A stretch of DNA of 12,595 nucleotides. Source: Globomyces pollinis-pini (taxonomy: Eukaryota; Chytridiomycota; Chytridiomycetes; Rhizophydiales; Globomycetaceae). The notes under the pieces are model-generated. The model was not told where the DNA came from, did not search any database, and saw only the letters and a program-made list of their open reading frames with translations. Each line of letters starts with the position of its first letter. Position 1 is the stretch's first letter. Of the stretch, positions 1 to 12,595 are shown piece after piece. Location of the stretch: positions 1 through 12,595 of the forward strand of contig MU621515.1 in the NCBI GenBank assembly GCA_025399215.1, in the 5' to 3' direction. Position numbers and translations under genes: made by a program.

Positions 1-486
1 AGATAAACGGTGGTAATACGTTCAAGACTTCAATTGGGATCACGACCTTCTTTTTGATTGTTGCAGCATAAAGTACTTCATCAATCGCCAGATCAAATAT
101 ACTTTTCGCAACATTTCGGTATGCCATCAATGCGACTTTATCTGTGACTTGTTGGATGGTCTCTGCGAATCTTACAAAGCTCCCATTTCTGTTGAAGAAG
201 ACTGATTGATATTGAATGGCGATGGCAGCTTGAAACTGTAAACCATTCTGAGCTGTTTTATCTCGAAATATATCGTACAGGTCCATTAATTCATTACCTA
301 TATTTAGTTCACGATTGCTTTACATAATAAGTCCAATGTTGCATTTGTAGTAGAACTGACTGGTTTACTTGCATCTTGTGGCCAATTCGGCAGTGTATGT
401 GGTTCAATATCAAATTGAACTCCAATTAGCTTTCCCGCTACCAACGGTATTGAAAGCATAAATTGAATGAGTATATATGGTTTCAT
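1..486 (-). CDS. Secreted protein of unknown function, 5' part (runs off left edge)
   Basis: I do not recognise this protein. The ATG at 486 opens with a hydrophobic stretch (MKPYILIQFMLSIPLVAG) that reads as a secretory signal peptide. A short region with N-glycosylation potential (NAT, residues 48-50) follows, then a stretch that looks mostly helical. The first exon hits a stop at 304-306. Removing a 26-nt GT-AG intron at 298-323 (donor GTAAAG, ACTAA before the acceptor) joins Leu-Leu-Cys to Asn-Glu-Leu-Met, and the frame then stays open to base 1. The intron length and shape match those in the conserved genes nearby, which supports the model. The C-terminus is outside the window. The gene is tandem with TAH18 and 179 bp downstream of its stop. 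It may be secreted or vacuolar. No catalytic motif is visible. Confidence 0.7.
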
Positions 487-665
487 TTGAGTTGTATAAA
501 TTAGAGATGTGTCGAAAGTAACTTCAATTCGACGCGATCAATGTTTCACAAACAAACATCATCTACAACTTAAATCAGCTCAAATCAAATATTTAATATA
601 CAATTTGTAAAAATTCATGTTATGACAGCATGAAAGTTTTATGCTTTGTGAGGAAAATAGATTTA

Positions 666-2696
666 TTATGACCAACATTCCTGTTGAAAATGTCCAGTCT
701 TTTCTAAATTCTTGAAATATTTTCGCGCCATATCTTCAGAAAGGTTTCCAAACTGACCAATGATTTTGACAAATGCCTCTGCTACATCAATAGGCATTCG
801 TTTAGCATTTCTGAATTAGAAAATCATTAATGAACTTACCCAGAAAGGTATATATGAGCAGATTGGTTATGTATCATGTTCCACAATAACTCGCCATTTT
901 CTTCTATTTTATGTTGAACATAGATTTTATCATCTTGGTCGCGTGAAAAAGCGGTGATTAGTCGTAGGTTGGGAATTTCATTCCAATCATTTTCGTATAA
1001 GAAATCATTTTTCCTGTTTCGATTCCCGAATATTAATATTTTTGCTAGTAATTAGAAAAAAATTCACAGTACGGACACTAGGTGATAATTGGTGATACTC
1101 CAATATCAGTGATCGCATTGGTGCTACACCAGTACCTAAGATAAGGCAAATGCACTATATATACCAGGTCCAATACATATAATCGGGTGATGAGAATTAA
1201 GTGCTGGTAAGCGGAATGTGCCACGTTGAATACCGAACTTAATTACATCTAAATGTTAGTATTGAATAACTACCTCCAATTTTAATTTGAGCTAACCAAT
1301 TAGTGCAAACCCCTAAACGAGGTTGGGCAAGTCTAGTTTTAAACTTAACTATCCCCGCCGTTAGATGTATCTCCTTGGGGTGTATCTAAAACATTCAAGT
1401 TTACGAGAGACATACCGATGGTGCTGACGATATGGAAAAGGCTCGGGTTCTCATAAATCCGATCACATCAGGTAAATACTTGATCGGCAACTTGACTGAA
1501 TTGAAATCCTGTAATACTTCAAACATTGTTCTTTTCATTTTGTGAGCGTACAAATACAAATCATTCTAATATGATTATTACTAAAATATTTGATACCTGT
1601 CCTTCAGTACTAGAAAACTCTTCCAACTTTTCGATCTGTAGAGGGTCGGTGGCAAAGAATGCCAGTAGTTGGAAAAAATACCTTCTTGGCCTTCCAAATA
1701 TATCCAAATGTTTTTCAAATAACTCTCTGAGTGTGATTGGTTTCTGTAAAAAAGCTGGAATTGTGTGCCCTAAGATGTTAATGCTTTTCGGGAACCTTTG
1801 ACTTCAGGGTCCCTCTTAAACTCAATTAGTCGGTCTGCAATATCTGACCACCCAAAATATTCCAATACTTCTTTAACCCTTTCTGACAGATTTTGCGGGT
1901 AAATGACCATAATGTCTCCAGCAGCATACTGAAACTCATTATCATCAACAGTAAATTCGAAGTGCCTTATATCCTGAAAATGAGTGGGTGCTGTAATAAG
2001 CTTGTTGGTTTTCACTTGTGCTTTATATTCACCATTTTCAACTTCCAATACGGAATTAGTGCATTCAGAGTCTAACATTTCAATAGCATACGTACTTGGA
2101 GGGAGAATGTTTGCAGGAATGATCTCTAGTCCTTTGGGCATCGGAAACAAAGATAATGCATTATCCCAAAAGGATGTTAACCAAGGATCCAACGCGCCAT
2201 CAACACTAATCATATTAAAGATACAAATGTTTACCCAAGGTAGTGTTGGTCATCTCCGTCACCACATGGAAGTAATGGATGAGCACCAAGTTGTATTAAT
2301 CGTTTGTGTAGTTTTTTTGCAGGATAGTTAAACCTTTAATGTAAATCAATAATTGAGACTACTTTGCGTAAGATGAATCACCCTGACCGAATACTCCAAA
2401 GTGCATCAAAGATAAAGAGTCGGATGCTAATGATTTCCGTAACAGATATTTCCAAAAAGCTTTCATTGTATCTGGTTCTTCACCCTGACCAGTAACAGAG
2501 CACACCAAAACGACCAATTGTTCATTCGGTAAATTTGACTTTGATTAACGAAAGGGTGATGAATTACTATAACATATTTGTCCATTGGTAACAATTCAAC
2601 AGCAAAATGTCTCTGCCTTCCCTCCCTCTGAATTCTTTCTGCAGTCTCTTGACAGTATCCAGTTTGAGATCCAAATAAAATCAACAACCTTGACAT
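666..2696 (-). CDS. TAH18: Tah18/NDOR1-type NADPH-dependent diflavin oxidoreductase
   Basis: This protein passes electrons from NADPH through FAD and FMN to Dre2 (anamorsin) in cytosolic iron-sulfur cluster assembly. Eleven exons encode about 577 aa, close to the family's usual 600. Introns lie at 2539-2573, 2334-2362, 2206-2234, 1770-1795, 1566-1596, 1386-1415, 1249-1273, 1136-1164, 1045-1078 and 811-839. Visible motifs, in order, are the FMN loop GSQTG near residue 10, GQGDSSYAKFN in the flavodoxin domain, the FAD motif RAFSISSAPS near 368-377, GVCTNWL, and the NADPH motif GPGTGVAPMR near 441-450. The C-terminus ECWS has the penultimate-type Trp typical of the family. The start at 2696 puts the FMN loop at the expected distance. 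A near-cognate GTG extension is open upstream but lacks conservation support. The gene is divergent from ALG11, and a 26-bp palindrome lies 11 bp upstream of the ATG. Confidence 0.95.
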
Positions 2697-2864
2697 CTTG
2701 ATGGTAAAAAAGTGGAACAATTGTTCCACTTTTCACCCATAAAGACCCTCCTACATTCATTGATTTTAGGAAACTATTAAAGACCCATTTCTTCTCAATT
2801 TGTATTTCAGTATTCATACAAACAAATCCAATCTTGGAAAATTTTCCTACTAGAACGACATCGT
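2697..2864. promoter_or_regulatory. 168-bp divergent promoter between TAH18 and ALG11
   Basis: The two start codons face away from each other across 168 bp, so this interval must hold both promoters and both 5' UTRs. I see no clear TATA box. A CCAAT-like sequence (aatccaatc) lies near 2826-2834, about 30 bp before the ALG11 start. The main structure is the palindrome at 2708-2733, much closer to TAH18. The assignment as a shared promoter comes from gene orientation alone. Confidence 0.6.
2708..2733. repeat. Perfect 26-bp palindrome next to the TAH18 start
   Basis: Thirteen bases are followed directly by their exact reverse complement, with the centre between 2720 and 2721 and no spacer. The core reads GTGGAACAATTGTTCCAC and is flanked by four A on one side and four T on the other. 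The next outer pair does not match. It could bind a dimeric regulator as DNA, or form a hairpin in the TAH18 leader if the transcript starts upstream. Neither role can be decided from sequence. Confidence 0.9.
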
Positions 2865-11319: not shown

Positions 11320-11369
11320 ATGATTACAGTAAAATATAAAGTTGTGATATCTAAATCTATGTTTTTATA

Positions 11370-11916
11370 GTGAATTTGAGATTACTATATACTGAGATTG
11401 TTATTTCGAGGATTCCTCTCGAATTTCACACAATAATTGAAAAGAAAATATTAAACGGGACTGGATTTACTAGCACACGCCAAGGTGAAGATATCCTGCT
11501 GTTGCGCGCTGGCGCGTTACCTTCATATCGACAATGGATTCTTGTAAAGAATTATTGCCCCAATTTGAATGAGTTTATCAAAGAATTTCATTTAAAATAC
11601 AATGGTATCGCCCAGTACTCTATCTATATCACTTTTATCAATGGCATTTCAGTCATTGCAAAGTGATATGTAAGTGCATGGTGTTATTTTATAGTCCTAC
11701 TATCAATTATTTTATAGTCCTACTATCAATAGTTTCTTTTGGGCTGTGGCAATTCGGTCAGGACAAGGCGATACTTACATAAGTAGTATCGGTGGGGCAC
11801 CTAATGATACCGGGTATTTTAGTCGATATCTCCTAATAAAATCTATTAAAAGTTGTTTAAATGAAGACGTATCTGTGGTGTTCACGTCCGTTAAAATCAT
11901 TAGAGCAAGTTTATAA
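11370..11916 (+). pseudogene. Start-less reading frame with faint RNase H-fold resemblance; decayed or incomplete gene
   Basis: An open frame without any ATG runs from about 11355 to 11662. A donor at 11663 and an acceptor at 11717 continue it in phase to a stop at 11914-11916. The second exon resembles the RNase H fold in outline: ANPTINSFFWAVAIR recalls the first hairpin, SRYLLIKSI the helix and VVFTSVKII the later strand. The catalytic acids (TDG, NRxEL and TDS positions) are absent, being replaced by residues such as Asn, Leu and Ser. A further stretch in another frame near 11920-11980 (KPLFNNR) might continue the likeness after a frameshift. I cannot find an upstream exon in phase, and the secreted-protein gene ends only 50 bp before. 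It may be a decayed retroelement or rnh-like gene, a catalytically dead protein, or chance. The resemblance is weak and done by eye. Confidence 0.3.
11684..11729 (+). repeat. Perfect 23-bp tandem duplication containing a 3' splice site
   Basis: The 23 bases at 11684-11706 are repeated exactly at 11707-11729. Each copy contains TTTTATAG, giving two identical acceptors 23 nt apart. With the donor at 11663, the first gives a 32-nt intron typical of this genome but then an early stop. The second gives a 55-nt intron and keeps the downstream frame open for about 200 nt. Confidence 0.9.
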
Positions 11917-12115
11917 GCTAGTATTGATGGTAGATAGTTGGTGCCAGACTCAAATCAAACCCTTGTTTAATAATCGAATGATACCAGTTTTCTAACCTTC
12001 TTATCTAATAAAACCGGGTTGGTATCTTTCGTATCACAGTAGATCAAAAATCGGAATCACGAGACCTTTTATTTCTTTACAATTTTAGTGAAGAAACTAA
12101 ACTAGAAATAGGAAG

Positions 12116-12595
12116 ATGACGATAAACAACACCATTTCAGCGATCAAGATCAGCGCTGTCTTCAAAACAACAAAAGCCGCAAGTTCTTTCGTTAAAGAGG
12201 ATATTCACAAGCTGGTAATTTTCCCTGCTTGTGATCTACCTACCATAACCTTCTTGAAGCAAAACCAAAACGTTCTCATCTATGCCATATACGGGGATGA
12301 AAGTTATCTTTCAAATATGTTGGATATTGTTCTCTTGCCACCGGCAAGTATCGCAGAAATCAGTCTGGTACCTCAAGGTCCTGGGTTAGATGATAAACCT
12401 TTAAAGCATCCTCAAATATCATTTAATCCAAAGTGGTTGTCGGGCAAAGGAAAAACCTCTAGCTACGAGAGATTTGGTCAGCATCAGAATCATCGTACAC
12501 CCATCAAAACAAGAAGCTTTACCAAAAGTACATGTATATATACTTAATTATAGATTTGTTTAATGTCCCTGGAAAAAAATCATCTGCCTCTACCC
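12116..12595 (+). CDS. Hypothetical protein, 5' part (runs off right edge)
   Basis: I do not recognise this protein. The ATG at 12116 opens a 137-codon exon. The frame would stop at 12545-12547, but this stop lies in a 26-nt GT-AG intron (12528-12553, donor GTACAT, acceptor TTATAG with CTTAAT just before it). Removing it gives Lys-Asn-Leu-Phe-Asn-Val-Pro-Gly and an open frame to the window end. The intron matches its neighbours in size and form, so a gene continuing to the right is more likely than a 143-aa protein. Visible parts are a mixed alpha/beta-looking N-terminal half (LVIFPACDLP, VLIYAIYGDESYL) and a basic, His/Ser-rich region after residue 100. No signal peptide, membrane segment or catalytic motif is evident. 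The 200 bp before the ATG hold no clear TATA box. Confidence 0.55.

What the first reader, a model, noticed from the sequence alone, without database searches (positions are those of the whole stretch)
1..12595. Genome with uniformly ultrashort spliceosomal introns (24-35 nt)
Forty-four introns can be placed by hand, 42 of them in five conserved genes. All fall between 24 and 35 nt, mean about 29. The five reconstructed coding lengths are exact multiples of three, and family motifs close over the junctions. This is near the lower limit known for spliceosomal introns, yet these genes have 6-10 introns each. Most fungi I know have introns about twice as long. The spliceosome of this organism must recognise donor, branch and acceptor in almost overlapping space, which makes it a useful system for studying minimal introns.
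Basis: partly seen in the sequence, partly recalled or inferred. Interest (0 to 1): 0.85.

Follow-up and report, generated by a model that had tools for sequence, protein, structure and literature searches.

The report
Chytrid genome with uniformly tiny introns
In this piece of a chytrid fungus's genome the genes are cut by many introns that are almost all about 29 letters long, much shorter than in well-studied fungi, so its splicing machinery must fit its landmarks into a very tight space.

Summary
All 42 introns in five conserved genes were recovered: 24-35 nt, mean 29.3, every spliced CDS open. The window is a whole contig of the chytrid Globomyces pollinis-pini: a 581-aa model with 10 introns removed is identical to a deposited protein. 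In three genes 24 of 29 junctions lie inside deposited proteins that match mine exactly; the other five lie where those proteins appear truncated and rest on orthologues. In 211 kb from 21 contigs, a gene finder with flat length prior puts 277 of 389 introns at 24-35 nt, against 16-60 of 182-328 for seven control dinucleotide pairs. They look like U2-type introns: GT..TAG, a yTnAy branch site about 20 nt from the donor and 8 nt from the end, canonical U2 snRNA, U2AF65 kept. About 20 nt from donor to branch is well under the roughly 50 nt needed in human extracts. As a kind this is known (ciliates, mikrocytids, nucleomorphs, Trichomonas), and 29 nt is not the lower limit. I found no report of it for chytrids in what the searches listed. 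No RNA data were available.

The parts
666..2696 (-). NADPH-dependent diflavin oxidoreductase (NDOR1/Tah18-like), 581 aa, 10 introns
   Evidence: identical to deposited P0001 of Globomyces pollinis-pini
2539..2567 (-). intron 29 nt (diflavin reductase 1)
   Evidence: junction inside deposited model
2334..2362 (-). intron 29 nt (diflavin reductase 2)
2206..2234 (-). intron 29 nt (diflavin reductase 3)
1770..1795 (-). intron 26 nt (diflavin reductase 4)
1566..1596 (-). intron 31 nt (diflavin reductase 5)
1386..1415 (-). intron 30 nt (diflavin reductase 6)
1249..1273 (-). intron 25 nt (diflavin reductase 7)
1136..1164 (-). intron 29 nt (diflavin reductase 8)
1045..1072 (-). intron 28 nt (diflavin reductase 9)
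811..839 (-). intron 29 nt (diflavin reductase 10)
2865..4472 (+). ALG11 mannosyltransferase, 466 aa, 7 introns
   Evidence: Pfam ALG11_N 247 bits over residues 43-247, four junctions, the first at its edge; not compared with a deposited model
2999..3025 (+). intron 27 nt (ALG11 1)
   Evidence: (run restricted to 18-42 nt)
3126..3158 (+). intron 33 nt (ALG11 2)
   Evidence: (restricted run)
3290..3315 (+). intron 26 nt (ALG11 3)
   Evidence: (restricted run)
3493..3524 (+). intron 32 nt (ALG11 4)
   Evidence: (restricted run)
4012..4043 (+). intron 32 nt (ALG11 5)
4167..4192 (+). intron 26 nt (ALG11 6)
4260..4290 (+). intron 31 nt (ALG11 7)
4607..5812 (-). mitochondrial carrier (SLC25 family), 302 aa, 10 introns, internal exons of 10, 11 and 17 nt
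   Evidence: last 247 aa identical to deposited P0130
5742..5769 (-). intron 28 nt (carrier 1)
   Evidence: outside deposited model; orthologues P0131, P0133
5664..5695 (-). intron 32 nt (carrier 2)
   Evidence: outside deposited model; orthologues
5602..5632 (-). intron 31 nt (carrier 3)
   Evidence: restricted run; outside deposited model; orthologues read GHPLDTIKVRLQ
5591..5601 (-). 11-nt microexon in the carrier
   Evidence: encodes part of DTIK, conserved in orthologues
5558..5590 (-). intron 33 nt (carrier 4)
   Evidence: restricted run; outside deposited model; orthologues
5447..5478 (-). intron 32 nt (carrier 5)
5250..5277 (-). intron 28 nt (carrier 6)
5211..5239 (-). intron 29 nt (carrier 7), 10 nt after the previous one
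5170..5193 (-). intron 24 nt (carrier 8), length divisible by three and stop-free, missed by the run
4988..5016 (-). intron 29 nt (carrier 9)
4801..4831 (-). intron 31 nt (carrier 10)
5948..7660 (-). RTF1 (Paf1 complex, Plus3 domain), 482 aa, 9 introns
   Evidence: first 424 aa identical to deposited P0121
7565..7595 (-). intron 31 nt (RTF1 1)
7425..7450 (-). intron 26 nt (RTF1 2)
7334..7366 (-). intron 33 nt (RTF1 3)
7253..7278 (-). intron 26 nt (RTF1 4)
6932..6961 (-). intron 30 nt, GC-AG, length divisible by three and stop-free (RTF1 5); placed by hand
   Evidence: the ten residues it would encode are absent from P0121 and from five orthologues
6826..6853 (-). intron 28 nt (RTF1 6)
6665..6697 (-). 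intron 33 nt (RTF1 7)
6516..6544 (-). intron 29 nt (RTF1 8)
6126..6153 (-). intron 28 nt (RTF1 9); the deposited protein ends at its 5' edge
   Evidence: outside deposited model; the C-terminus after splicing aligns to P0122-P0124
7832..9619 (-). SLC13/DASS-type Na+/anion symporter, 536 aa, 6 introns
   Evidence: Pfam Na_sulph_symp 342.6 bits over residues 42-534, five of six junctions; not compared with a deposited model
9528..9562 (-). intron 35 nt (DASS 1), outside the family domain
   Evidence: ab initio only
9089..9114 (-). intron 26 nt (DASS 2)
8941..8968 (-). intron 28 nt (DASS 3)
8790..8820 (-). intron 31 nt (DASS 4)
8322..8349 (-). intron 28 nt (DASS 5)
7988..8016 (-). intron 29 nt (DASS 6)
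298..323 (-). candidate intron 26 nt in a gene cut by the contig end
   Evidence: only (ab initio); the model has no family match

Best explanation
Globomyces pollinis-pini has a population of U2-type spliceosomal introns compressed into a narrow length band (about 24-36 nt, mode 28). Shown by sequence: GT..AG ends with a weak donor (GTA, little preference at +5), a yTnAy branch motif about 20 nt from the 5' splice site and about 8 nt from the intron end, mostly TAG acceptors, a U2 snRNA with the canonical GUAGUA branch-pairing sequence, a U2AF65 gene, and matches to the METTL16 and SNRNP27K families. Inferred: the spliceosome pairs sites across the intron (intron definition). With the 5' splice site and branch helices almost abutting, intron length itself acts as a recognition signal, and introns cannot shrink below what the two RNA helices need. 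Internal exons of 10, 11 and 17 nt make exon definition implausible.
For:: a deposited protein of this species is identical to a model with 10 introns removed; in three genes 24 of 29 junctions fall inside deposited proteins that are exact substrings of mine; 42 introns, 24-35 nt, five open CDSs; length peak with a flat prior, absent from seven control dinucleotide pairs; 402 of 429 at 23-37 nt (this run used lengths learned as prior); a branch motif learned without position starts 10-14 nt before the intron end in 280 of 393 introns, against a mean of 126.6 (sd 9.0, maximum 156) in 200 shuffles. U2 snRNA, 135.4 bits. U2AF large subunit, 323 bits against cut-off 310.3 on the spliced model. Methyltransf_10 (METTL16 family), 128.8 bits. 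SNRNP27, 49.7 bits; orthologues agree with the spliced proteins.
Against: No RNA data. Deposited models may be ab initio in part. 27 of 429 calls are 54-189 nt and only one of them was examined; some may be real. 8 of the 42 window introns were placed by a run restricted to 18-42 nt and one by hand. U1 and U6 snRNAs were not found by the searches made, which is not proof of absence. The Methyltransf_10 family also rings in 5 of 14 prokaryote control genomes, so the match alone does not prove METTL16. The U2AF65 model still contains one 126-nt intron call. The sample is about 1.1% of the genome, mostly chosen around carrier genes.
Confidence: 0.94

Rival explanations
1. Two size classes: a dominant ultrashort class plus a minority class of ordinary longer introns (50-200 nt), as in Trichomonas types B and A.
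For: 27 of 429 calls are 54-189 nt; a 126-nt call remains in the U2AF65 model. 26 of the 27 were not examined one by one.
Against: The 186-nt call in the carrier resolves into three introns (31, 33, 32 nt) and two exons (11 and 79 nt) supported by orthologues and, for the last intron, by the deposited protein. With the flat prior, GT-AG yields 79 calls of 60-120 nt against 109-187 for the control pairs, so that band looks like method noise. None of the 42 introns in the five genes exceeds 35 nt, although 8 of them come from a run restricted to 18-42 nt.
Confidence: 0.15
2. The inserts are not spliced: they are assembly errors, pseudogene decay or segments translated or bypassed in another way.
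For: No RNA evidence was available here.
Against: GT/GC..AG boundaries, a positioned branch motif, agreement with deposited proteins and orthologues, and intact domains.
Confidence: 0.02
3. The spliceosome is grossly reduced, as in microsporidia or mikrocytids, and short introns are a by-product of genome erosion.
For: Ultrashort introns; RED_N, U1 and U6 not found.
Against: 18.5-Mb genome; about 3 short introns per kb CDS in the sample and 5.9 per kb in the five genes (42 in 7,116 bases); U2AF65 and matches to the METTL16 and SNRNP27K families. The RED_N and U6 searches rang nowhere and the tool says this does not show absence. Only a handful of parts was tested.
Confidence: 0.08

Closest known systems
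Paramecium and Nyctotherus introns (about 25 nt)
   Same: Only ultrashort introns, in one narrow class (PMC5014332 passages). Weak donor and TAG-type ends in Paramecium are recalled, not from a call.
   Different: Fungus, slightly longer (mode 28). Enrichment of in-frame stops in 3n introns is reported for Paramecium there; here the matching test is inconclusive.
Stentor coeruleus introns (15-16 nt)
   Same: Uniform tiny introns, nearly fixed branch position, all snRNAs reported present (PMC9505925, abstract and passages).
   Different: Half the length; branch A at position 10 or 11, against about 20 here.
Mikrocytid (16-17 nt) and chlorarachniophyte nucleomorph (18-21 nt) introns
   Same: Narrow, minimal length band (PMC10245619 passages).
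   Different: Those are reduced genomes of a parasite and a relict nucleus; this is an intron-dense fungal genome that keeps U2AF65.
Trichomonas vaginalis type B introns (23 to about 25 nt)
   Same: Similar size (PMC12316389 passages).
   Different: Only 24 such introns there, beside a longer class of 39; here they are the rule in the sample.
Short introns of Cryptococcus neoformans (mean 63 nt)
   Same: Intron-dense fungal genome (PMC8476143 passages).
   Different: Twice the length.

Membership tests
U2-type spliceosomal introns | GT(GC)..AG boundaries whose removal restores conserved proteins | tested here: met
   42 of 42 in five genes; 41 GT-AG, 1 GC-AG; 24 of 29 junctions inside matching deposited proteins
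U2-type spliceosomal introns | Branch-site motif at a constrained distance from the 3' end | tested here: met
   yTnAy; 280 of 393 within the 10-14 nt band against a mean of 126.6 in 200 shuffles
U2-type spliceosomal introns | U2 snRNA and a U2-pathway protein encoded in the genome | tested here: met
   U2 snRNA with GUAGUA; U2AF65
U2-type spliceosomal introns | U1 and U6 snRNAs encoded in the genome | tested here: inconclusive
   No Rfam match (U1: 41 of 244 candidates scored; U6: 47 of 1792); two U6 patterns 0 hits; a third 23 hits at up to two mismatches against 12 for the reversed pattern, one hit examined
U2-type spliceosomal introns | Excision seen in RNA | not testable with these tools
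   No reads available
Genomes with a single ultrashort intron class (Paramecium type) | Narrow unimodal length distribution below 40 nt | tested here: met
   402 of 429 at 23-37 nt, 27 at 54-189 nt, in about 1.1% of the genome; flat-prior control. Met for the sample only
[quoted passage not shown]
   About 47 stop-free 3n introns expected; hidden excess of 3n candidates inside exons 7 to 40 by one baseline and -6 to +72 by another, depending on threshold; in the five genes 8 of 42 are 3n, 2 of them stop-free

The most novel reading that the evidence does not exclude
In this chytrid, and perhaps across its order, a spliceosome that keeps U2AF65 and matches to the METTL16 and SNRNP27K families has been remodelled so that 5' splice site and branch site act productively only about 20 nt apart, well under the roughly 50 nt needed in human extracts. 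Intron length itself serves as a main recognition cue alongside a degenerate donor. If so, there is an altered B-complex route (for example changed Smu1/RED dependence) in a fungus that, extrapolating the sample, offers tens of thousands of natural test introns.
Probability: 0.35. Interest if true: 0.7.

Novelty: new member of a known kind. Interest (0 to 1): 0.5.

Why it matters
It places a uniform ultrashort-intron architecture in an intron-dense fungus that keeps U2AF65, so it can be compared directly with the well-studied fungal and human spliceosomes. Its natural donor-branch distance (about 20 nt) is well under the minimum measured in human extracts (PMC6692369), which makes the question of what sets the minimum intron testable by comparison. 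It also matters in practice: two of the three deposited gene models checked on this contig appear truncated next to a microexon or an ultrashort intron.

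Tried and rejected
18S rRNA identification: three identical requests met a busy machine, and a conserved-core pattern found nothing; the organism was identified by protein identity instead.

U6 snRNA: the Rfam model scored 47 of 1792 candidates and matched none. Two patterns gave no hit. A third gave 23 hits at up to two mismatches, against 12 for the reversed pattern; I examined only the best one (C45, one mismatch), which reads by eye as coding sequence and gave no Rfam match. 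The other 22 were not examined. An intron inside U6, known in some fungi (recalled), was considered and not shown.

An 18-nt intron alternative in the carrier (5447-5464) was considered by hand and rejected: the 32-nt intron gives the deposited and orthologue spacing.

Two donor classes (U5-type and U6-type, passages of PMC11732430): -1G and +4A are anti-correlated among the 402 short predicted introns (odds ratio 0.30, p 9e-9), -1G and +5G are not (0.99). In the 42 window introns there is no association (odds ratio 0.85, p 1.0). Scoring by additive weights can create the former, so I do not claim it.

Selection against stop-free 3n introns: suggestive at most, see the membership test. The gene finder cannot see most of them, and the window itself gave two that it missed.

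RED: one search, nothing found, no positive control; no conclusion. METTL16 and SNRNP27K: family matches only, no full gene model was obtained for METTL16; the gene found beside it on locus L034 is another one.

Papers: of the nine papers holding the species name I looked at passages of two. 'Rhizophydiales' with 'intron length': 0 papers. 'Chytrid' with 'short introns': 7 papers, judged from titles and abstract starts only. Searches were judged from their listings, which for searches show only 20 of the papers found, apart from the papers cited. In what I saw there is no report of intron length in Globomyces or Rhizophydiales. The library holds open-licence papers only; the genome paper (Amses et al. 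2022) was not read.

Full report
What the window is. The window is the whole of contig C420 of an 18.55-Mb, 459-contig assembly. Gene finding gave a 581-aa diflavin-reductase model with ten introns. It is 100% identical over its full length to a deposited protein of Globomyces pollinis-pini on a contig of the same length, 12,595 bases. That species is a chytrid: Chytridiomycota, Rhizophydiales, Globomycetaceae. Its genome is cited as Amses et al. 2022 in passages of PMC13391722 and PMC11797018; I did not read that paper.

The introns in the window. Five genes carry 42 introns of 24-35 nt (mean 29.3, sd 2.5): diflavin reductase 10, ALG11 7, mitochondrial carrier 10, RTF1 9, SLC13/DASS transporter 6. 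All five spliced CDSs are in frame from M to stop. Unspliced, each gene span has at least 11 stops in every frame, the terminal one counted. A gene finder that allowed 15-200 nt placed 33 of them; a run restricted to 18-42 nt placed 8 more in ALG11 and the carrier; the GC-AG intron was placed by hand from the orthologue alignment. Family models cover most junctions: ALG11_N 247 bits, Mito_carr 238.8, Na_sulph_symp 342.6 (five of six DASS junctions), three flavoprotein domains, and Plus-3 76.2 on the model before the GC-AG intron was removed.

Independent models. For three of the five genes I could compare with deposited proteins of the same species. Each deposited protein is an exact substring of my spliced protein, and 24 of 29 junctions fall inside them. 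These include a 30-nt GC-AG intron in RTF1 and a 24-nt stop-free intron in the carrier. The comparison is of proteins, so it fixes the reading across a junction, not the cut to the base. The five others lie where the deposited models appear truncated. The carrier model starts after the first 55 residues, which are encoded over four introns and an 11-nt exon. The RTF1 model ends at the edge of the last 28-nt intron. For the carrier, three of five orthologues aligned (Boothiomyces, Kappamyces, Batrachochytrium salamandrivorans) match from near the start; the deposited proteins of B. dendrobatidis and Entophlyctis have other N-termini, though the former shares GHPLDTIKVRLQTQ. For RTF1, P0122, Kappamyces and Boothiomyces share the acidic C-terminus; the two Batrachochytrium proteins do so only weakly. 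How the deposited models were supported by RNA is unknown to me. ALG11 and DASS were not compared with deposited models.

Genome sample. I fetched 20 further regions (198,594 bases), 18 around carrier hits and two arbitrary. A simple gene finder with a flat intron-length prior peaked at 25-35 nt in all five settings tried. With prior range 15-120 nt, 277 of 389 GT-AG introns were 24-35 nt; seven control dinucleotide pairs gave 16-60 of 182-328 in that band. In the 60-120 nt band GT-AG gave 79 and the controls 109-187, so longer calls are mostly what the method produces without signal. The refined model, which uses the learned lengths as a prior, gives 429 introns in 107 models, 402 of them 23-37 nt and 27 of 54-189 nt. 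The one long call in the window's carrier dissolves into three short introns; the other 26 were not examined. The sample has about 3.0 short introns per kb of CDS, and the five genes 5.9 per kb (42 in 7,116 bases); the gene finder misses some.

Anatomy. Donors are GTA with little information at +5; -1G is 59% and +5G 23% in the 349 introns. Donor information is 6.3 bits and acceptor 5.1 bits, the invariant dinucleotides included; the narrow length is worth about 4.2 bits against a uniform 15-200 nt. A branch motif yTnAy, learned without position, starts 10-14 nt before the intron end in 280 of 393 introns; 200 shuffles average 126.6 with a maximum of 156. With the search limited to the last part of the intron, the branch A lies at position 20 (5-95%: 17-25) with 8 nt after it (6-12). 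The motif was learned on the same introns, so only its position is independent evidence.

Machinery. U2 snRNA is present with the canonical branch-pairing sequence. The spliced U2AF large-subunit model scores 323 bits against a cut-off of 310.3. Methyltransf_10, the METTL16 family, matches with 128.8 bits, but that family also rings in 5 of 14 prokaryote control genomes; SNRNP27 matches with 49.7 bits and rings in none. U1, U6 and RED_N were not found; none of these searches had a eukaryotic positive control, and they do not show absence.

How it most likely works. Shown: sequence anatomy and some conserved U2-pathway parts. Inferred: intron definition, because exons of 10, 11 and 17 nt sit between introns of 24-33 nt in the carrier, and because length adds information comparable to a splice site. 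In passages of PMC6692369, human extracts need about 50 nt between 5' splice site and branch site, and the two helices lie about 15 nm apart in the human B complex. Globomyces has about 20 nt. So either the helices form in sequence or the complex is arranged differently; that is inference.

Known or new. Uniform tiny introns are known: Paramecium and Nyctotherus about 25 nt (PMC5014332), Stentor 15-16 (PMC9505925), mikrocytids 16-17 and a nucleomorph 18-21 (PMC10245619), Trichomonas type B 23 to about 25 (PMC12316389); abstract or passages seen. So 29 nt is not the lower limit and the kind is known. What seems new, as far as the listings of the open library show, is its place: an intron-dense chytrid that keeps U2AF65. 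A kingdom-wide intron study (PMC8476143, passages) gives Cryptococcus, mean 63 nt, as its example of short introns, and its main text does not hold the word Globomyces.

Noticed in passing
window 5591-5812 (-) and 6126-6153 (-): Two of three deposited Globomyces models checked appear truncated: the carrier lacks 55 N-terminal residues around an 11-nt microexon, and RTF1 stops at the edge of the last 28-nt intron.
   Followed up: yes
Alignment A2, Boothiomyces sp. JEL0866 protein P0131: The deposited Boothiomyces carrier lacks about ten residues around SGFVNGFFSSPMEL and reads SLWLIIVKIRLQ there, which looks like a retained tail of an ultrashort intron at the same place; a hint that the trait is shared in Rhizophydiales. 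No DNA was available to test it.
   Followed up: no
window 4607-7660: Carrier and RTF1 are neighbours here; in Kappamyces sp. JEL0829 they have consecutive locus numbers (HDV03_002996 and HDV03_002997) on contigs of the same length.
   Followed up: no
window 10411-11319 (+): Intronless gene model for a secreted-looking, cysteine-containing protein with an NNQ-rich repeat (24-nt unit, 10888-10965); no Pfam family.
   Followed up: no
window 11684-11730: Perfect two-copy tandem repeat of 23 nt.
   Followed up: no
window 12101-12547 (+): Open frame of 148 codons with no Pfam match.
   Followed up: partly
20 sampled loci L011-L030 and window: Introns divisible by three are scarce in phases 1 and 2 (20 and 21 against about 57 and 36 expected), partly because stop-free ones are invisible to the gene finder; Paramecium-like selection is possible.
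   Followed up: partly
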